DNA of 7,151 nt from Rickettsiales bacterium (GTDB lineage Bacteria; Pseudomonadota; Alphaproteobacteria; TMED109): contig PBGQ01000041.1 in assembly GCA_002720125.1 (NCBI GenBank), positions 1-7,151 on the forward strand, written 5' to 3'. The first letter of the stretch is position 1. Every line of letters starts with the position of its first letter. Positions 1 to 7,151 of the stretch are shown one piece after another. The notes beneath the pieces were generated by a model. That model was not told where the DNA came from. It ran no database searches and saw only the letters and a program-made list of their open reading frames with translations. Made by a program: the position numbers and the translations under genes.

Positions 1-713
1 CCTGCAGTTAATAAATACATTTGATCAAAAATTTTAAGTTGAAAAATTAATTGCAATGTTAAAACAAGAGCTGTGATAGGCCAAATTAAAGGCCAAGTTA
101 TATATCTAAACTTAGCCCAAGAATTTGCTCCATCCAAATCTGATGCTTCGTAAATTTCTGGATTAATTGATTTAAGACCTGCAATAAATAATAAAATATT
201 GAAACCTACGGTCCACCAAATTGTTACAATTGCTACAGCTGGCATTGCAAATTGTTTTTTCTTGAAAAAAGCAATTTTTGCATAACCCAAAAATTCTAAA
301 AATTCTTGAATAATTCCGTATTGTTTAGATAACATCCAAGACCAAACTTGAGTTACTACCGTAACAGGTAAAATATGTGGTATAAAGAAACAAGCTAAAA
401 GAAATGCTGCAACATAGGGATTTTTAAGTCTATTAATCATCATTGCACACATCAGACCAATTAAAGTATTTGGCACAACTGTCCAAAAAACAAAAACAAA
501 TGTATTTTTTAATGATTTAAGAAAAAGTTTATCATTAAAAAGCTTTAAATAATTTTCTAAACCTACCCATTTACCCCATCCAATTAACGGGGAGTCAGTG
601 AAACTGAACAATAACGTATAAATTGTAGGATAAAGTAAAAATAGAACATAAAAAAATATAAAAGGAAAAGCAAGTAAGAGACCCCAAAAATTTGAATTAC
701 TATATTTTTTCAT
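1..713 (-). CDS. Sugar ABC transporter permease, MalF/UgpA-like (3' end outside window)
   Basis: Inner-membrane permease subunit of a binding-protein-dependent carbohydrate importer (CUT1 type). The reading frame opens with ATG at 713-711 and stays open through 237 codons to the window edge, so the C-terminus is missing. The N-terminus MKKYSNSNFW is followed by a hydrophobic first helix (about residues 10-38), a short periplasmic stretch with GWGKWVGLENY (45-55) typical of the family, and further helices at about 70-92, 100-125 and 158-180. The EAA loop that docks on the ATPase is clear at residues 189-212 (EASDLDGA, then F, then WPLIWP). The last visible residues, IFDQMYLLTA, match the usual conserved FDxVYxLTxGGP segment. 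It lies directly downstream of the solute-binding protein, so both likely belong to one transport operon whose second permease and ATPase would follow to the left. The substrate cannot be read from the sequence; a sugar or glycerol-phosphate-type compound is plausible. Confidence 0.93.
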   Translation of the reverse strand, partial: MKKYSNSNFWGLLLAFPFIFFYVLFLLYPTIYTLLFSFTDSPLIGWGKWVGLENYLKLFNDKLFLKSLKNTFVFVFWTVVPNTLIGLMCAMMINRLKNPYVAAFLLACFFIPHILPVTVVTQVWSWMLSKQYGIIQEFLEFLGYAKIAFFKKKQFAMPAVAIVTIWWTVGFNILLFIAGLKSINPEIYEASDLDGANSWAKFRYITWPLIWPITALVLTLQLIFQLKIFDQMYLLTA

Positions 714-723
714 ATTTTAAATT

Positions 724-750
724 TAAGCTGCAGTAAAGTACTGCAGCTTA
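724..750 (-). repeat. Perfect 12-bp inverted repeat / hairpin between binding protein and permease
   Basis: TAAGCTGCAGTA (724-735) and TACTGCAGCTTA (739-750) are perfect reverse complements with a 3-nt loop. The hairpin lies 22 nt after the binding-protein stop and 10 nt before the permease ATG. No T-run follows on the minus strand, so it is not a classical intrinsic terminator. By analogy with other transport operons it could protect the upstream mRNA from 3' exonucleases and lower permease expression relative to the binding protein; that role is inferred. Confidence 0.8.
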
Positions 751-772
751 GTTTTATAAAAAGATCTTAACT

Positions 773-1744
773 CTACATTAGAGCTTCAAGATCATCTCTC
801 ATCATTTGAATTGCTTCTTCAGCACTTAATTCTCCATTAACTGCAGGAGCAATATAGTTACTAAAAGCATCATAAGTTGGTGAAGCAACACCTGCGATAG
901 GTAAGAATGGATCTACAACCATATTGTCACCAATGTTAGCATAAGTGCTATTTGGCTGCATATTTTTATAGAATACACTATCCACAACTTCTGTATTTGC
1001 AGGTATATGACCAGCTGTTCCCCAGAAGAGACTATTATCACTCATCCAACCCATAACTTTTAAAACTGCTTCTAGTTTCTCATCAGATATTGGGTTTTTA
1101 TCACTGTGAGGAATAGCAAATGCATGTGAATCAGACCATGTAGCCATTTTAGGACCAACTTGAGGCATATCTACAACACCAAATTTAAAACCTAATTCAT
1201 TATTTCGCATTAAATCAACCATAGTAGGAACTTCCCATACACCGTTGATGTGAATTGCTGACTCGCCACTTATAAACATACCTTTTGCAGATTGGTAATC
1301 GACGTTACTTGGCATATATCCTTTTTCAACAAGATCGATTAAAATTTGTAAAGATTTTTCACATTTATCTCCAGGACAAATACTACTTCCGTCTACAAAA
1401 TCTCCTTCCATCATGTTAAGGATCGAATACCACCATCTCCAAATCATACCTCCGTTATCAGAAGCGAAACCAATTGGAAATTCCATCATTTCATCTAGTT
1501 TAGCTAGACCATTCATAAAATTGTCTACACCATCTAATAATGTTGGATGACCATTTTCATCAAGTAAACCAGCTTCACCTAATACTTCTGCATTAAAATA
1601 CATAACGTTAGCATGAATATCTAGTGGAACACCATGCGTTGCTCCTCCAAAGTTAGCTGCTTCCCAGTTAGCAGGAAAAAATCTCAACCATTCTTTCGAA
1701 AGATACTTCTTTTGATAATATTTTCTTATACAGTTCATAACCAC
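773..1744 (-). CDS. Sugar ABC transporter solute-binding protein, N-terminally truncated at a fusion junction
   Basis: Periplasmic family-1 extracellular solute-binding protein that would capture a carbohydrate and hand it to the adjacent permease. The open frame can start at a GTG (1744-1742) and gives 323 residues, but only residues from about 24 on (PANWEAANFGG, then GVPLDIHANVMYFN) look like a binding protein. The first ~22 residues are an out-of-frame reading of the neighbouring NuoF-like sequence, not a signal peptide. Family signs include the cross-over segment GVPLDIHANVMYFN (about 38-51), HINGVWEVP in the middle, a TWSDSHAFAIP segment and GHIPANTEV near the C-terminal third. Family members are usually above 400 residues with a signal peptide, so roughly the first 100-130 residues are missing. 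As drawn here the protein would stay in the cytoplasm and lack much of lobe 1, hence it is probably non-functional, or it is intact in the real genome if the junction is an artefact. The stop is TAG at 775-773. Confidence 0.85.
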   Translation of the reverse strand: MVMNCIRKYYQKKYLSKEWLRFFPANWEAANFGGATHGVPLDIHANVMYFNAEVLGEAGLLDENGHPTLLDGVDNFMNGLAKLDEMMEFPIGFASDNGGMIWRWWYSILNMMEGDFVDGSSICPGDKCEKSLQILIDLVEKGYMPSNVDYQSAKGMFISGESAIHINGVWEVPTMVDLMRNNELGFKFGVVDMPQVGPKMATWSDSHAFAIPHSDKNPISDEKLEAVLKVMGWMSDNSLFWGTAGHIPANTEVVDSVFYKNMQPNSTYANIGDNMVVDPFLPIAGVASPTYDAFSNYIAPAVNGELSAEEAIQMMRDDLEALM

Positions 1745-2309
1745 CCGATTTTAAATATTGTTTCAAAGTAATGTGTTTACCATTTTTATAAGATAACTGT
1801 TTGGTCTGTATAGCGTCTTCTATTTTATCTAAAGAGGTGTTTAGTAAATGATTATGATTAACTTCTACAACAGGAGCGTAATTGCACCTTCCCATACATG
1901 GGGCTTTTTCTACCCTAAAGTTTTTATACTTTAATTTTGTTCTTTCGTATAATTTCTCTGCATCATACATAGCACATGTAACACTGTCACAAACTTTAAT
2001 TGTCACTGGAGAAACTTTCTCCGTATCAGTGTTGAGAATATGAAAATGAGCATAAAAACTTGCAACTTCATACACTTCAGACATGCTTGTTTTGACCAGT
2101 TCGGATAATGCCCTTAAATGTCTAGGGTAAAGTCCTTTATACTTGTCGTTAAACAGATGCAGATATTCTATCAACATATCCTTTGATAGTGGAAAATAGC
2201 CACTGAGCAGCTCATTGGCTTCTTCTAAAGAAGTTTTATCAACTTGCCTTCCTTTATTGTAGTAAATTTTATTTCTTCTACCTGGTCCACGTTTTTTTAA
2301 TGTTTGCAT
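1668..2309 (-). CDS. NAD-dependent formate dehydrogenase beta subunit (NuoE/FdsG + NuoF/FdsB fusion), truncated after the NuoE domain
   Basis: The 213-residue product carries a complete NuoE-like thioredoxin-fold [2Fe-2S] domain. The cluster ligands are Cys107-x4-Cys112 (CDSVTC) and Cys138-x3-Cys142 (CMGRC), with the preceding helical segment SEVYEVASFYAHF (77-89) typical of NuoE/FdsG. From residue ~179 the sequence becomes the start of a NuoF/FdsB domain (ITLKQYLKSGGYELYKKIL, then VSFERMVEI) but stops at residue 213, just before the expected glycine-rich GLRGRGGAGF NADH/FMN site. The whole NuoF domain is therefore lost. In the intact enzyme this electron-transfer subunit would pass formate-derived electrons through Fe-S and FMN to NAD+. 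ATG at 2309-2307 is preceded by GAAGAG at 6 nt spacing. The basic start MQTLKKRGPGRR is not a signal peptide. A hydrogenase diaphorase or complex I subunit is an alternative, but the neighbouring Mo-cofactor genes favour formate dehydrogenase. Confidence 0.82.
   Translation of the reverse strand: MQTLKKRGPGRRNKIYYNKGRQVDKTSLEEANELLSGYFPLSKDMLIEYLHLFNDKYKGLYPRHLRALSELVKTSMSEVYEVASFYAHFHILNTDTEKVSPVTIKVCDSVTCAMYDAEKLYERTKLKYKNFRVEKAPCMGRCNYAPVVEVNHNHLLNTSLDKIEDAIQTKQLSYKNGKHITLKQYLKSGGYELYKKILSKEVSFERMVEIFSC
1673..1690. other. Junction between truncated formate dehydrogenase gene and truncated binding-protein gene
   Basis: Read on the minus strand, NuoF-like codons can be followed down to about 1680 (MVEI), and binding-protein codons begin in another frame by about 1675 (PANW). 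The point contains a run of six T (A6 on the plus strand), which could be microhomology at a deletion or a mis-join. The two frames overlap on paper over 1668-1744, but only one of them is meaningful on each side. Confidence 0.8.
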
Positions 2310-2501
2310 TCCCTACTCTTCAACTGTCAACATGTTAAAATTTCAATTATATTATAATAAAAAAAAAATTGATATTCATAATATAGCATTTTATTATCAA
2401 AAGTCTCAAAAAAGAAGAAAACTATGACTTTTTTAAAAAGTTATTATAGTCTTTATAATAAAGTTATTTATAATAAATTAAATTTAACTTAAAATGGAAT
2501 T
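2310..2501. promoter_or_regulatory. Divergent intergenic region carrying promoters for the dehydrogenase and mobB operons
   Basis: This 192-nt, nearly all A/T spacer separates two divergently transcribed, functionally related units, so outward promoters must lie here. TATAAT hexamers are present on the minus strand at 2356-2351 and 2351-2346 and on the plus strand at 2454-2459 and 2469-2474. None has a convincing -35 box at 16-18 nt, and in such AT-rich DNA these hexamers are weak evidence. No known riboswitch fold or clear operator was recognised. Confidence 0.45.
2441..2477 (+). repeat. Overlapping AT-rich inverted and direct repeats upstream of mobB
   Basis: TTATTATA (2441-2448) and TATAATAA (2454-2461) form an 8-bp inverted repeat with a 5-nt loop. 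TTTATAATAAA occurs twice in direct orientation (2452-2462 and 2467-2477), 15 bp apart. The block lies 25-60 nt before the mobB start and contains both plus-strand TATAAT hexamers. It could be a regulator site or only low-complexity sequence. Confidence 0.4.
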
Positions 2502-2505
2502 TTGA
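2494..2505 (+). other. Three-codon minigene overlapping the mobB start
   Basis: ATG-GAA-TTT-TGA sits just before mobB; its stop TGA (2503-2505) overlaps the mobB TTG start (2502-2504). The only ATG close to mobB is therefore out of frame. It could serve re-initiation or be accidental. Confidence 0.3.
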
Positions 2506-2996
2506 AGAAAGTTTTTGGAATATCAGGCTGGAGCGGTTCAGGTAAAACAACATTGATTATTGAACTAATCAAATTGTTTTCAAAAGACTATAAACTAAAT
2601 GTTTGCGCGATTAAACATGCTCATGAAAATTTTGAAATAGATCACAAAGGAAAAGACACGTATAATTTTGCAAAATCTGGTGCAAGCAAAGTTATTGTAT
2701 CCTCTTCAAAAAAAACGGCAGTTATTGACTATTTAAATAATAAAACTGAAGTTATTAGCCTGTTAGAGTTTACAGGGAAGGCTGATATTGTATTAGTAGA
2801 GGGGTGGAAGAATAGTAGTTTAAATAAAATTGAAGTTTATAGAGAATGCGTAAATAAACCCTTGCTTTACAAAAATGATAATAATTTTGTAGCTCTTGCT
2901 ACAGATAAAATTAATTTTAAACTTGAAAGAGATATAAAGCTTTTAAACCTAAATAATGTTAGCGAAATTGCAAATTTTATAATTGAATATTCTTAG
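2502..2996 (+). CDS. mobB: MobB, molybdopterin-guanine dinucleotide biosynthesis adaptor protein
   Basis: A 164-residue GTP-binding P-loop protein that assists conversion of molybdopterin to the guanine dinucleotide cofactor (MGD) used by formate dehydrogenases and related molybdoenzymes. Walker A is GWSGSGKT at residues 9-16. The family signature IKHAHENFEIDHKGKD runs from 37 to 52, followed by KSGASKV. Walker B-like DIVLVEGWK lies at 95-103, and ALATD near 131-135 completes the set. The length agrees with MobB (about 160-175). The start is TTG at 2502, giving MKKVFGISG, which fits the family N-terminus; the ATG at 2494 is out of frame and hits a stop after three codons. No strong Shine-Dalgarno is visible. 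It is the first gene of a plus-strand operon, 12 nt ahead of moeA, and diverges from the formate dehydrogenase gene. Confidence 0.93.
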   Translation: MKKVFGISGWSGSGKTTLIIELIKLFSKDYKLNVCAIKHAHENFEIDHKGKDTYNFAKSGASKVIVSSSKKTAVIDYLNNKTEVISLLEFTGKADIVLVEGWKNSSLNKIEVYRECVNKPLLYKNDNNFVALATDKINFKLERDIKLLNLNNVSEIANFIIEYS

Positions 2997-3008
2997 CGTA
3001 CTAGATAA

Positions 3009-4217
3009 ATGATAAAATATAATCAGGTAAAAAAAATTTTAAAAGATAATGTTACTTCAATAAAAAAAACAGAATTGATTTCTCTAGATAAAGCTACAAA
3101 TAGATATTTGGCTACGGAAATAAAATCTAAATTTTTCATACCACCTAAAGATAATTCAGCTGTAGATGGATTTATATTTAATTATAAACAATATAATATT
3201 TCTAAAAATAAAAATTTTGTTATAAAAGGAGAAATCAACGCCGGGGAAACTTCAAAAAGTAAAATAGACGTTAATAGCTTTTTAAGAATATCTACAGGAG
3301 GACAAACTCCATCAAATTTAGATACCGTAGTAATGCAAGAAAACGTTGTTACTGAAAAGAATAATATTGTTTCTATAAATGGACTAATTAAGAAAGGTAT
3401 GAATGTTAGAAAGAAAGGAGAGGATATAAAAAAAGGACAACTAGTCTTTTCTAAAGGTCACAAATTAAGACCACAAGATATAGGAATGTTGGCTTCACTT
3501 GGCATATCACGTGTAAAAGTTGTAAAAAAAATTAAAATAGGAATTTTATCTAATGGAAATGAATTAATTGAGCCAGGAAAAAAAAAGAAATTTTATCAAA
3601 TCTACGACAGTAATAGATATATGCTAAAATCTTTTTTGAATAAAGAAAGTGTAGATTGGATTGACTTTAAAATTGTAAAAGATAAAGAAAGTTCGGTTTT
3701 AAAGAAAATAAAAAATGCAAAAAAAAAATGTGATGTTTTAGTTATAACAGGAGGCGCTTCAACAGGAAAAAAAGATTTCATGTCATATGCAATCAAAGAA
3801 ATAGGAACATTAAACTTTTGGAAGGTTTCAATTAAACCAGGAAGGCCTTTTGGATTTGGGATCTTGCCAATTAATAAACCTACTCTTATGATACCTGGTA
3901 ATCCCGTGGCAAGTTTCACTATTTTTTTTTTATTTGGAAGGTTTTTAATTAATCATATGCTTGGAAATAATAACTTTTCTCATAAAAGTTTTAAAGTTAA
4001 ATCCAATTTTGTAATGAAAAAGAAAAAGGGAAGAGAGGAATTTTTGAGAGCGAGAATTTTTTATAAAAATAATACTATGTATGTAAATAAATTTAAAACA
4101 CAAGGAGCTGGAATCTTAAACTCTTTAGTCTGGGCTGATGGTTTAGTGAAACTTGATGAAGAAAAAGAAAGAATTAAAAAAAATGAATTTTTAGAATTTT
4201 TTCCTTTTGAGTTTTAA
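3009..4217 (+). CDS. moeA: MoeA, molybdopterin molybdenumtransferase
   Basis: Cytoplasmic enzyme inserting molybdate into adenylylated molybdopterin, the last step to active Mo cofactor. The 402-residue length is typical of bacterial MoeA. Conserved blocks in order: DNSAVDGF (48-55), the INAGE turn (76-80), RISTGGQTP (93-101) then DTVVMQENV, VRKKGEDIKKG (133-143), GMLASLGISRVKV (159-171), the MPT-binding domain strand GILSNGNEL (178-186), YDSNRYML (199-206), VITGGASTGKKDF (245-257), KVSIKPGRPFGFG (272-284) and IPGNPVASF (295-303). Glu185 and Asp53 sit where catalytic acidic residues are expected from the family. Small departures, such as GGASTGKKDF where GGVSVGxxD is commoner, do not remove core residues. 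It starts with ATG 12 nt after mobB, without a clear Shine-Dalgarno, and its TAA stop shares one base with the ATG of the next gene (TAATG), indicating translational coupling. Confidence 0.95.
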   Translation: MIKYNQVKKILKDNVTSIKKTELISLDKATNRYLATEIKSKFFIPPKDNSAVDGFIFNYKQYNISKNKNFVIKGEINAGETSKSKIDVNSFLRISTGGQTPSNLDTVVMQENVVTEKNNIVSINGLIKKGMNVRKKGEDIKKGQLVFSKGHKLRPQDIGMLASLGISRVKVVKKIKIGILSNGNELIEPGKKKKFYQIYDSNRYMLKSFLNKESVDWIDFKIVKDKESSVLKKIKNAKKKCDVLVITGGASTGKKDFMSYAIKEIGTLNFWKVSIKPGRPFGFGILPINKPTLMIPGNPVASFTIFFLFGRFLINHMLGNNNFSHKSFKVKSNFVMKKKKGREEFLRARIFYKNNTMYVNKFKTQGAGILNSLVWADGLVKLDEEKERIKKNEFLEFFPFEF

Positions 4218-4435
4218 TGAAAAGTTTTAACTTTATAGGCCTCAAATGCCCTTTACCCGTTCTTAAAGCAAATAAAATTTTAAAAAATGATCAGGAAAAT
4301 AAAATATTTGAGTTTTTGTGTGATGATGCTACAGCACCTACAGATTTTCAAAATTTAGCAAAAAACCTCAATAATATATCAATTGAAATAATAGATAAAA
4401 AAGAGTTCTATAGAATATTAGTTAAAAAGAATTAG
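4217..4435 (+). CDS. TusA/SirA-family sulfur carrier protein
   Basis: A 72-residue single-domain protein of the TusA family, small cytosolic carriers that hold sulfur as a persulfide on one cysteine. The signature is at the N-terminus: GLKCPLPVLK with the sulfur-carrying Cys11 in a CPxP motif, followed by the second-strand CDDATAPTDF (about 35-44). The CPLP form instead of CPEP suggests a specialised paralogue rather than the tRNA thiolation TusA. Its start codon overlaps the moeA stop (TAATG). Family knowledge links TusA to Mo-cofactor synthesis and to sulfuration of formate dehydrogenase via FdhD; the operon position supports a role in sulfur supply for the cofactor, which remains an inference. 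The gene ends in a TAG whose bases overlap the stop of the convergent gene. Confidence 0.85.
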   Translation: MKSFNFIGLKCPLPVLKANKILKNDQENKIFEFLCDDATAPTDFQNLAKNLNNISIEIIDKKEFYRILVKKN

Positions 4436-5145
4436 TTCTCAAATGTAGCTATTATAGAACTTCCACCGCCGGCTACAGCGCCGGCTAAAGCAGCAGATAA
4501 AACTGCTATTCTAAAAGTAGTAGTGGTAGGAACACTCGAAATTATATGTCTGCTGTTAATTTCGCTTGCCGCTATGCCATCTACAGATGAGTTTACATCG
4601 ACTAAAGTAACAAATTGTCCAGCAACCGCACCATGAGTACCTGGCGTGGTAACTTCCAGTATTTTTGAACCTGCAGAAATTGATTTTATAGGATCTGTTC
4701 CTAATGAGATTATGCTTCTTACATTTGATGCATCGGAGGATTTATTCTCTTTTGTACTTGTAGTTGCAATTATCTGGGGTGACCTCAATGCTTCTGCCTC
4801 TGCTCTAGCTTTAATTCTATTAGTTTTTTCTTTTTCTAGTCTTTCAGCTAGCCTTCCAGCTTGTGCAAGGTTTCCCTTTTCAATCATTTCATGTATAATT
4901 TTATCTGTTTTATTAGTTGAAATATATTCGCTGGATTTTTTTTCATTATTATTCTCTTCATAGGTATTACTGTAAACTTCAATATTTTTAATATTGTCTT
5001 TGCACAATGTTAGTATCTTATTTAACTCTATTCCCTTCTCAACTGCTTTTTTAATACAAACATTTATATTTTCCGAATATGTTAAATTAGAAACTAAAAA
5101 ATTCGACAGAATTAGTAAAAAAAATATTTTTTTATTAATTATCAC
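4432..5145 (-). CDS. Secreted protein with coiled coil and phage-tail-like C-terminal domain, function unknown
   Basis: A 237-residue protein with a probable Sec signal peptide (MIINKKIFFLLILSNFLVSN, cleavage perhaps after TYS at 24). After it come two cysteines (Cys30, Cys48) that could form a disulfide, a polar Asn/Lys/Ser-rich linker (59-80), and a charged helix likely to form a coiled coil (about 81-121, rich in E, K, R and A). The C-terminal part (about 161-237) reads KILEVTTPGTHGAVAGQFVT, continues with DGIAASEINSRHIIS and TTTTFRIAV, and ends in AGAVAGGGS. Its order of motifs resembles the 'HGlxxGdxVt ... iN ... I ... ttTF ... GGG' modules I know from phage tail and virion proteins. The family name is not certain. 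The start is GTG (5145-5143), 11 nt inside the preceding pentapeptide gene, with a good Shine-Dalgarno. A periplasmic or outer-surface location is expected. Confidence 0.75.
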   Translation of the reverse strand: MIINKKIFFLLILSNFLVSNLTYSENINVCIKKAVEKGIELNKILTLCKDNIKNIEVYSNTYEENNNEKKSSEYISTNKTDKIIHEMIEKGNLAQAGRLAERLEKEKTNRIKARAEAEALRSPQIIATTSTKENKSSDASNVRSIISLGTDPIKSISAGSKILEVTTPGTHGAVAGQFVTLVDVNSSVDGIAASEINSRHIISSVPTTTTFRIAVLSAALAGAVAGGGSSIIATFEN

Positions 5146-5830
5146 AGGATATTATCTCCTTACTCCAAGGTAAAATTGTATCACATATTATACTGTTTTT
5201 AAGTGAATTCTCATCTATCTTATATTTAGCAAGATTCATACCAGAGACGTTTGACTCATTCAACATAACATTATCTAGGTTTGAGCTAATAAAGATAGAG
5301 TTTCTTAAGTCTAGAGCTTTCATTTCAGCTCCATTAAGATTTGCACTGCTAAAATCTGTCATGAATAATTGACTTCCAGAGAGTATTGCATTTGATAGAT
5401 TTGCTCCTCTAAATTTAGAATACTTCAAATTAGCTCCATCTAGTATTATATTTTCTGCCTTACTTTTTGAGAAAACTGTTGAAATTAGGGTAGTGTCTGT
5501 AAATTTCGCAGCAAAAAGATTGGAGCCATTTAGCCTAGACTCTGAAAGATTAGAGCCTTCAAAGTTAACTTCATCTAATATAGAGATATAAAATTTACAT
5601 TTAGTTATATTGGAATAAGTTATACTGGAACCAGTCATGATAGCTCCAGAAAAATCAGAACCTGATAAGTTGGAACTTTCAATTACTGAATTTATTAATT
5701 CTAATTTTTTAAAGTTCGCATTTGATAAATCGCAATTAATACAAGTTTTAGTTTCCAAAAATTTTTGTAAATCTTTTTGATCATATGTTAAGGCATTGAG
5801 GCTTAATAAAAACAGAAAAAATTTTAACAT
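5135..5830 (-). CDS. Secreted pentapeptide-repeat protein
   Basis: A 231-residue protein with a short signal-like N-terminus (MLKFFLFLLSLNAL, 1-14) followed by about 33 consecutive pentapeptides (about 35-200) of the A(N/D)Lxx type, for example CDLSNANF, GANLKYSKF, RGANLSNAIL and SSANLNGAEM. Such repeats fold as a right-handed quadrilateral beta helix. A CINC pair (30-33) caps the N-terminal side, and the tail ICDTILPWSKEIISC (215-229) has the Cys...LPW...Cys pattern seen at the end of related exported pentapeptide proteins. Serine is frequent in the repeats. The molecular role is unknown; nothing in the sequence points to a gyrase-protecting Qnr-type function, and export argues against it. 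ATG at 5830-5828 lies 16 nt after the tRNA CCA end, with AGGA very close to the start. Its end overlaps the next gene by 11 nt, so the two secreted proteins are probably co-translated. Confidence 0.88.
   Translation of the reverse strand: MLKFFLFLLSLNALTYDQKDLQKFLETKTCINCDLSNANFKKLELINSVIESSNLSGSDFSGAIMTGSSITYSNITKCKFYISILDEVNFEGSNLSESRLNGSNLFAAKFTDTTLISTVFSKSKAENIILDGANLKYSKFRGANLSNAILSGSQLFMTDFSSANLNGAEMKALDLRNSIFISSNLDNVMLNESNVSGMNLAKYKIDENSLKNSIICDTILPWSKEIISCDN
5157..5162 (-). promoter_or_regulatory. Ribosome binding site deciding the GTG start at 5145
   Basis: AAGGAG on the minus strand, inside the end of the pentapeptide gene, lies 11 nt before GTG 5145-5143. No in-frame ATG exists ahead of the signal-peptide hydrophobic core, so this site supports the GTG start. 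Confidence 0.6.
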
Positions 5831-5846
5831 GTTCCTAGTTTTAATT

Positions 5847-5921
5847 TGGTGAGCCCGCTGGGATTCGAACCCAGGACCCCTCGCTTAAAAGGCGAATGCT
5901 CTACCGCTGAGCTACGGGCTC
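5847..5921 (-). tRNA. tRNA-Lys (anticodon UUU), CCA encoded
   Basis: A complete cloverleaf can be folded by eye: 7-bp acceptor stem GAGCCCG/CGGGCTC, D arm GCTC-AGCGGTA-GAGC, anticodon stem TTCGC/GCGAG with loop CTTTTAA (anticodon TTT, lysine AAA/AAG), 5-nt variable region GGGTC, T arm CTGGG-TTCGAAT-CCCAG, discriminator A and a genomically encoded CCA at 5849-5847. Length is 72 nt without CCA, 75 with it. It lies 41 nt after the tgt stop and 16 nt before the pentapeptide gene, all in the same direction. Confidence 0.97.
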
Positions 5922-5934
5922 TGAATATAAGTAC

Positions 5935-5960
5935 ATTATATTTATTTTTGTATATTTCAA
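5935..5960 (-). promoter_or_regulatory. Possible promoter of the tRNA-Lys unit
   Basis: On the minus strand TTGAAA (5960-5955) is followed by TATAAT (5940-5935) ending 13 nt before the mature tRNA 5' end. The -10 is a perfect match and well placed, but the spacer is only 14 nt, shorter than usual. Transcription could instead continue from tgt. Confidence 0.3.
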
Positions 5961-5962
5961 GT

Positions 5963-7039
5963 TTAAAGTTTTAATTTGTTTAAATTCCCTTCTTCTATAC
6001 TTTTTCTTATCCTAGACATAATATTGCTATAGTAGCATAAGTTATGAGTTGTAAGAAATACACTTCCTAGAATTTCTGAAGATTTAACTAAATGATGTAA
6101 ATAGGCTTTCGAATAATTATTACAGATATTACAATTACAATTTAGGTCTAAAGGTAATGGGTCCGATGCATATCTAGAATTTCTAATTTTTATAACACCT
6201 TGACTTGTAAAAGCCAAGCCTGTTCTTCCTGACCTAGTTGGAAGTACGCAATCAAACATATCTATTCCTTTTTTAACCGCTTTTAATATATCTGAAGGAT
6301 AACCTATACCCATTAAGTATCTGGGTTTATTAACCGGCATATTCTTCGTACAAGTGCTAGCAATCTCGAGCATTGTATCTTGTTTCTCACCTACTGCTAA
6401 ACCTCCTATAGCAAATCCGTCAAAATCAAGATTTATTAACTCCTTTATGGATCTCAATCTAAGTTCTTTATACATACCACCTTGTATTATACCAAAAATA
6501 CCAAAACCTTTTTTATGTATATAAGCTTTTCTTGACCTAATAGTCCAGTTGGTTGACCTATTAAGAGAGTCTTTAGTTTCTTCAAATGAAAATGGGTATG
6601 GAATACATTCATCAAAACTCATTGTTATTGTAGAATTTATTTTTCTTTGAATTTCAATAGCTCTTTCAGCAGTTAATCTATAAAGAGTTCCGTCCAAATG
6701 AGACCGAAAAGTCACTCCATCACTATCTACTTTTACATTATTACCCAGTGACATGACTTGGAATCCTCCTGAATCGGTCAGAATAGATTTATTCCAAGAC
6801 ATAAATTTATTAAGACCTCCTTGAGCTTCTATCAAGTCCTCGCCTGGCCTTAACATAAGGTGATAGGTATTAGCTAATATGATATTATAATTCATATCAA
6901 ATAATAACTCTTTGCTTATGCCTTTAACAGTACCAAGTGTACCTACCGGCATAAAAGCAGGTGTTTTAATTTCACTGTATTTGGTTTTTATAAGCCCTGT
7001 TCTGGCATCTCCAAATTCTTTGAGTATGCTAAATTTCAT
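5963..7039 (-). CDS. tgt: Queuine tRNA-ribosyltransferase (tRNA-guanine transglycosylase)
   Basis: Exchanges guanine 34 of tRNAs with GUN anticodons for the queuosine precursor preQ1 (bacterial type). The 358 residues cover the full TIM-barrel protein, slightly shorter than the usual 370-380. Visible landmarks: TVKG (37-40), [13 protein letters not shown] (54-66), the general acid/base Asp89 in [11 protein letters not shown] (88-98), SFDECIPYP (141-149), GIIQGG (183-188), [11 protein letters not shown] (208-218), the nucleophile Asp263 in [14 protein letters not shown] (261-274), and the zinc site Cys301-x-Cys303-x2-Cys306 with His332. All catalytic and zinc residues are present, so it should be active. 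ATG at 7039 is inside the last codons of queA (11-nt overlap), indicating co-transcription of two consecutive queuosine-pathway genes. A tRNA gene follows downstream, but tRNA-Lys(UUU) is not a queuosine substrate. Confidence 0.97.
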
Positions 7040-7151
7040 TTTTTATCAATAACATTGCATCACCATAAGAAAAAAAACGCATATTATTTTTTATGGCTAT
7101 TTTATAGTATTTTAATATATTTTCTTTTCCAGCGAAGGCAGAAACCAATAT
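7029..7151 (-). CDS. queA: QueA, S-adenosylmethionine:tRNA ribosyltransferase-isomerase (3' end only)
   Basis: Only the last 40 codons are in the window; the 5' part lies beyond the right edge. The frame reads [20 protein letters not shown] and ends [16 protein letters not shown] before TAG (7031-7029). The LVSAFAG block and the [11 protein letters not shown] block are the characteristic C-terminal signature of QueA, which turns tRNA-bound preQ1 into epoxyqueuosine using the ribosyl part of SAM. This is the step directly after Tgt, and the 11-nt overlap with tgt reproduces a common queA-tgt arrangement. Confidence 0.94.

What the first reader, a model, noticed from the sequence alone, without database searches (positions are those of the whole stretch)
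1660..1760. Out-of-frame fusion of a truncated formate dehydrogenase gene to a truncated sugar-binding-protein gene
Two same-strand genes of unrelated function are both cut at one point: the NuoE-NuoF gene ends just before the conserved GLRGRGGAGF site, and the binding protein lacks its signal peptide and first lobe. The frames do not match, and a T6 run sits at the join. Either a large deletion removed the rest of the formate dehydrogenase locus plus the start of the transport operon, giving a natural loss variant, or the contig is chimeric (metagenome assembly or whole-genome amplification). Either way, automatic annotation would give two seemingly normal proteins (213 and 323 aa) whose ends are false.
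Basis: partly seen in the sequence, partly recalled or inferred. Interest (0 to 1): 0.72.

Follow-up and report, generated by a model that had tools for sequence, protein, structure and literature searches.

The report
Two bacteria's DNA wrongly joined
At one 10-base shared string this contig switches from the likely sugar-uptake genes of one bacterial lineage to the formate-oxidation genes of another; the same assembly also holds the formate genes uncut, so the join is most likely an assembly or library artefact and the two odd proteins around it are likely not real.

Summary
In detail: at window 1675-1684 a NuoE-NuoF-type formate dehydrogenase beta gene and an ABC binding-protein gene, both on the minus strand, are cut and joined out of frame. 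The deletion reading fails.

Contig C30 of the same assembly matches window 1675-5183 at 99.2% without gaps, then runs on into a 561-aa beta gene, alpha subunit, MFS transporter, FdhD and MobA. The whole run TGT to MobA is present in that order in three of six same-family stretches; two more keep it from TGT to beta.

Window 1-1684 belongs to another lineage: it is 97.7-97.9% identical to four other alphaproteobacterial records, and the binding-protein gene is an uncut 420-codon ORF in six of six such records. TGT of the four, found in three, is only 39-49% identical to the window's, against 66-70% in five close same-family genomes. The binding protein was not found in 60 other genomes.

The arms meet at 10 shared bases, AGATTTTTTC (10 or more in 107 of 2,000,000 random breakpoint pairs). 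None of 384 other class genomes has the junction, but only four are same-family. Verdict: an inter-species chimeric contig. Whether template switching or misassembly made it is unresolved; a real transfer is not excluded.

The parts
1675..1684 (.). Junction: 10 bases (AGATTTTTTC on the minus strand) common to both source sequences
   Evidence: Aligned against C30 and against L016-L021; five of these six records share all 10 bases, L020 shares nine
1..1674 (.). Foreign left arm: ABC permease fragment and binding-protein 3' part from another lineage
   Evidence: 97.7-97.9% identical over 1-1684 to four records, 94.7% over 1-1683 to a fifth, 75.8% to a sixth
3..713 (-). ABC transporter permease, cut by the contig end
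   Evidence: Pfam BPD_transp_1, 52 bits
773..1744 (-). Predicted 323-aa ORF: residues 21-323 are a binding-protein piece, residues 1-20 are out-of-frame beta-gene sequence
   Evidence: close relatives match residues 21-323 only
1668..2309 (-). Predicted 213-aa ORF: 5' part of the formate dehydrogenase beta (NuoE-NuoF) gene, open frame of 561 codons on C30
1675..7151 (.). Native right arm
   Evidence: 1675-5183 matches C30 at 99.17%, 29 mismatches, no gaps; gene order kept in same-family stretches
2502..2996 (+). MobB
   Evidence: Pfam MobB
3009..4217 (+). MoeA
   Evidence: Pfam MoeA_N, MoCF_biosynth, MoeA_C
4217..4435 (+). TusA
   Evidence: Pfam TusA
4432..5145 (-). Unnamed 237-aa protein, kept in this place in relatives
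   Evidence: No Pfam match; 61-64% identical in five of six same-family stretches
5135..5830 (-). Pentapeptide-repeat protein
   Evidence: Pfam
5847..5921 (-). tRNA-Lys (ttt)
   Evidence: ARAGORN
5963..7039 (-). Queuine tRNA-ribosyltransferase (TGT)
   Evidence: Pfam TGT, 472.6 bits

Best explanation
The contig most likely is an artefact that joins DNA of two different bacterial lineages, probably both marine Alphaproteobacteria, at a shared 10-base string, so neither truncated gene is likely to exist as drawn. Shown: window 1-1684 matches one lineage and 1675-7151 another; the formate dehydrogenase locus is uncut on a second contig of the same assembly and the binding-protein gene is uncut in the other lineage. 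Inferred: a chimeric molecule (template switching at AGATTTTTTC during amplification or library making) or a false path in the assembly of a mixed population bridged the two, and the contig was binned with the formate dehydrogenase owner because most of its 17.9 kb is native.
For: Intact locus on C30, which parts from the window exactly at 1675. Left arm 97.7-97.9% to four records, ending at 1684; uncut 420-codon ORF in six of six records. The lineages are far apart: TGT pieces 39-50% identical in five of the six records, none in the sixth, against 66-70% in five close same-family genomes; a more distant same-family genome, G029, also has only 50%. Native gene order in same-family stretches. 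Binding protein in 0 of 60 other genomes; in the own genome its only other match is 24 residues on C30, from the out-of-frame beta stretch of the query, and its native 12.9-kb neighbourhood finds only window 1-1684 and one 48-base match. The left-arm gene shows normal constraint: 15-17 synonymous and 1 non-synonymous codon differences against each of four records, 49 and 5 against the fifth. Junction, up to 2 mismatches, in 1 of 385 class genomes, the own one. Ten or more shared bases at random breakpoints: 107 of 2,000,000. Signs of a population consensus: 32 of 38 Ns in the C30 beta gene at third codon positions and two variants of one locus in one bin.
Against: No reads are available, so coverage and pairs across 1675 were not seen. 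The window's genome is 79% complete and alone in its genus among held genomes, and only four of the 384 other genomes are of its family, so absence of the junction in its closest kin is untested. Many of the 27 same-family genomes that lack the binding protein are incomplete (54-97%). A 10-base overlap is short for an assembler (recalled), so the step that made the join is unresolved.
Confidence: 0.93

Rival explanations
1. A real strain carries a recent illegitimate insertion: transport DNA from another lineage recombined into the beta gene at 10 bases of microhomology and inactivated formate dehydrogenase, while a sister strain (C30) keeps it.
For: Two strain-level variants of the locus are in the bin, 29 differences in 3509 bp; microhomology is also a known substrate of illegitimate recombination (recalled). 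The join has microhomology beyond chance, which fits this as well as it fits a template switch.
Against: The foreign piece starts in mid-gene and stays 97.7-97.9% identical to the other lineage over its whole visible length. The junction is in none of 384 other class genomes (only four of the same family) nor in viral contigs. The binding protein was found in none of 27 same-family genomes. Of the 12.9 kb around the native gene, the own genome holds only the window piece and one 48-base match.
Confidence: 0.05
2. A large deletion within one genome removed the rest of the formate dehydrogenase locus and the start of a transport operon.
For: Both cut genes lie on the same strand.
Against: The arms match different lineages; intact locus in the same assembly; binding protein in none of 27 same-family genomes; in the other lineage the binding protein and the beta-like match are on different contigs in five of five genomes with both.
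Confidence: 0.01
3. The arrangement is the normal one for this species and C30 is the chimera.
For: C30 has an N-rich patch 382-712 bp from the breakpoint.
Against: C30's gene order matches G010, G015 and G019 gene by gene, and in none of the six same-family stretches does the binding protein follow the beta gene.
Confidence: 0.01

Closest known systems
Chimeric contigs in metagenome-assembled genomes (as defined in the GUNC paper, PMC8201837; passages seen)
   Same: One contig joins fragments from different sources; redundant strain material sits in the same bin
   Different: That paper calls misassemblies relatively rare; the step that made this one is not shown
Template-switch chimeras of multiple displacement amplification (Lasken and Stockwell 2007, PMC1855051; abstract and outline seen)
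   Same: Junction at a short shared string (they report 2-21 nt in over 70% of junctions); a second study gives a peak at 6 nt, mostly 5-8 (PMC4595205; passages seen)
   Different: More than 85% of theirs are inverted with intervening deletions, from one E. coli cell; this one joins two lineages, and whether amplification was used is unknown
Formate dehydrogenase locus with NuoE-NuoF-type beta subunit, alpha, FdhD and Mo-cofactor genes
   Same: The right arm plus C30 looks like an ordinary locus of this kind; alpha passes TIGR01591 (751 bits against a cut-off of 666.25)
   Different: In the window the locus is cut in the beta gene. The beta subunit itself reaches no NCBIfam cut-off (best: NuoF, 320.7 against 558.65), so its name rests on its neighbours

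Membership tests
Inter-genome chimeric contig | The two arms belong to different lineages | tested here: met
   Left arm to L016-L021, right arm to C30 and same-family genomes; TGT pieces 39-50% against 66-70% in five close same-family genomes
Inter-genome chimeric contig | Each arm continues uncut elsewhere | tested here: met
   C30; L016-L021, six of six
Inter-genome chimeric contig | Junction not found in independent genomes of the same species | tested here: inconclusive
   Only the own genome of 385, 0 viral contigs; but no same-genus genome is held, only four other same-family ones were, and metagenomes could not be scanned
Inter-genome chimeric contig | Read pairs or coverage break at the junction | not testable with these tools
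   No reads held
Natural deletion variant | Both arms come from one chromosome, same order, with the lost interval between | tested here: not met
Amplification (MDA) chimera | Short shared sequence at the junction (2-21 nt) | tested here: met
   10 bases
Amplification (MDA) chimera | Partners from one genome, mostly inverted (typical, not required) | tested here: not met
   The partners are from two lineages; it is therefore not filed as an MDA chimera
Amplification (MDA) chimera | Sample was whole-genome amplified | not testable with these tools

The most novel reading that the evidence does not exclude
A natural loss variant caught in the act: one strain of an uncultured, probably marine alphaproteobacterium swapped formate oxidation for a sugar-uptake operon from a distant neighbour, by recombination at only 10 shared bases.
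Probability: 0.05. Interest if true: 0.45.

Novelty: not a real feature. Interest (0 to 1): 0.1.

Why it matters
It clears a false gene loss and two false proteins from a genome record. Read at face value, the contig would suggest that this species lost formate dehydrogenase and has a sugar transporter; the assembly itself holds the intact locus, and the transporter piece matches another lineage. The case also shows how an inter-lineage chimera can stay in a bin when one arm is short (about 1.7 of 17.9 kb).

Tried and rejected
Natural deletion: rejected on lineage mismatch and the intact copy. Real fusion protein: in the search with the 323-aa ORF the 120 listed of 1018 proteins cover at most 96% of it; of the four listed above 94% I read three (P0030, P0037, P0041), and by eye none carries the chimeric first 20 residues; P0043 was not read. 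The 213-aa ORF cannot test the junction in this way, because only its last residue comes wholly from the other arm. Viral contigs: junction not found. Same-genus searches returned only the own genome. Papers: three searches; nothing from the first was used. I did not search print for this particular contig, so I make no claim about whether it has been reported.

Full report
What is there. The window is the first 7151 bases of contig C13 (17,927 bp) in an assembly of 1.42 Mb and 51 contigs, completeness 79.18, contamination 5.05. Two minus-strand ORFs overlap at the reported place: 773-1744 (323 aa) and 1668-2309 (213 aa). Pfam finds a solute-binding domain in the first and a NuoE-type [2Fe-2S] domain in the second. 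That the transporter carries sugar is a label by similarity: the only NCBIfam match of the window ORF, to MalE, is far below its cut-off (36.2 against 291 bits), and some relatives are named multiple sugar transport binding proteins by their source.

The formate dehydrogenase is not lost. Contig C30 of the same assembly matches window 1675-5183 with 29 mismatches and no gap over 3509 bp, up to its own end. On the other side of base 1675 C30 reads on through a 561-codon NuoE-NuoF beta frame, an alpha subunit, an MFS transporter, FdhD and MobA. Alpha passes the NCBIfam cut-off for formate dehydrogenase alpha (751 against 666.25 bits) and FdhD that of TIGR00129 (142.8 against 140.9). Beta passes none (best NuoF, 320.7 against 558.65) and the MobA match lies below its cut-off (132.6 against 151.85), so these two names rest on weaker matches, Pfam domains and context. 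The beta protein has the FMN-binding and 4Fe-4S domains that the window copy lacks.

The order is native on the right arm. I fetched seven stretches, six of them around same-family formate dehydrogenase genes. In G010, G015 and G019 the run TGT, 237-aa protein, TusA, MoeA, MobB, beta, alpha, MFS, FdhD, MobA is complete, without a match to the window's pentapeptide protein. In G025 and G031 it runs from TGT (with the pentapeptide protein) to beta and then alpha is cut, by the contig end in G025 and by another join in G031. In G029 TGT and the 237-aa protein are not in the stretch and beta and MobB lie about 1.9 kb apart, but the rest is there. Genes of C13 beyond the window line up too: the four ORFs between 7032 and 11,257 in five of five stretches tried (G010, G015, G019, G025, G031; G029 was not given), the next one (11,280-11,759) in four of five, and the last three (to 17,527) only in G031, beyond its own odd join; none in the G003 stretch that holds the binding protein.

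The left arm belongs elsewhere. A scan of genome contigs with the 323-aa ORF found 87 relatives, of which 80 loci were kept; the five best match residues 21-323 at 98-100%, and the sixth at 76%. At DNA level window 1-1684 is 97.7-97.9% identical to four of them (AG-893-M20, AG-920-E11, AG-891-P20, AG-895-D04), 94.7% to AG-325-F23 and 75.8% to AG-337-I02. The first five are titled MAG; their AG- names look like those of single-cell genomes (recalled). In all six the binding-protein gene is an uncut ORF of 420 codons, 339-419 residues of which equal those of the database protein P0001; P0001 stands for 196 member sequences. Searching these six genomes with window 1-5183 gave the left arm in six of six, but for the formate dehydrogenase part one 67-69% match of about 210 bp in five of six, each on another contig than the binding protein, and otherwise matches under 80 bases. 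The window's TGT finds pieces of 39-50% identity in five of these six genomes and nothing in the sixth, against 66-70% in five close same-family genomes and 50% in G029. I take the lineages to be distinct. In 60 other genomes, 27 of the same family, the binding protein was not found; in the own genome the only other match is 24 residues on C30 from the out-of-frame beta stretch of the query. The 12.9-kb native neighbourhood of the binding protein (L018) finds in the own genome only window 1-1684 and one 48-base match.

Who they are. One of 120 listed TGT relatives (69%) is named Alphaproteobacteria bacterium MarineAlpha9_Bin4, on a contig of 130,348 bases, the length of G010:C9; others are named Pelagibacterales or Pelagibacteraceae. 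That both lineages are marine Alphaproteobacteria is inferred from such names.

The junction. C13, C30 and the native binding-protein gene share AGATTTTTTC (minus strand) at window 1675-1684; to one side C13 follows C30, to the other it follows the binding-protein records. Of two million random breakpoint pairs between C30 and L018, 107 had ten or more shared bases (5.35e-5), so the shared string probably took part in making the join. This fits a template switch (2-21 nt reported for amplification chimeras, PMC1855051, abstract; peak 6 nt, PMC4595205, passages) but equally a natural microhomology event; it is short for an assembler overlap (recalled). The binding-protein piece differs from each of four records by 15-17 synonymous and 1 non-synonymous codons, from L020 by 49 and 5; the permease piece differs from the five by 14-21 and 2-7. 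It has thus probably been under selection until very recently.

Is the junction known elsewhere? With up to two mismatches it is in 1 of 385 class genomes, the own one, and exactly in no viral contig. Only four of the other 384 are of the same family, no other genome of the genus is held, and metagenomes could not be scanned, so this test is limited.

How it arose. Single N bases, mostly at third codon positions (32 of 38 Ns in the C30 beta gene), and two variants of one locus in one bin suggest an assembly from a mixed population; this is inference. In such data a chimeric molecule or false path can bridge two species; the GUNC paper names misassembly as a source of chimeric contigs, though relatively rare (PMC8201837, passages), and a benchmark with Illumina reads counted 22.15 (megahit) and 2.63 (SPAdes) chimeric contigs per genome (PMC11261854, passages). 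I commit to an artefact at 0.93; between amplification or library template switching and misassembly I cannot decide.

Verdict. The finding is ordinary as biology and useful as a correction.

Noticed in passing
L152 (G031:C16) about 10856-10866: Another truncated join in the same operon of a relative: the alpha gene ends after about 57 codons and continues out of frame into a UvrA gene lacking its first 171 residues. G025 keeps alpha up to its contig end.
   Followed up: partly
P0146 and P0121 (proteins found with window 1668-2309): Two more odd joins in short metagenome contigs: about the first 83 beta residues fused to an ABC ATPase end, and beta fused to the end of alpha. I looked only at this gene, so this says nothing about whether it is a hotspot.
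   Followed up: partly
L005 (C13) 9758-9783: The gyrA gene appears in two frames beside a cluster of N bases, while in G010 the two parts align in one frame (inferred from the coordinates); probably a consensus error.
   Followed up: no
L004 (C30) 13830-14160: 38 N bases in 331 bp of the beta gene, 32 of them at third codon positions.
   Followed up: partly
window 4212-5140: 24 of the 29 differences between C13 and C30 lie here, towards the end of C30, against 5 in 1675-4211: strain variants or a poor contig end. An earlier count gave this range wrongly as 4251-5140.
   Followed up: no
window 4432-5145: A 237-aa protein without Pfam match, kept at this place in five of six same-family stretches at 61-64% identity.
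   Followed up: no
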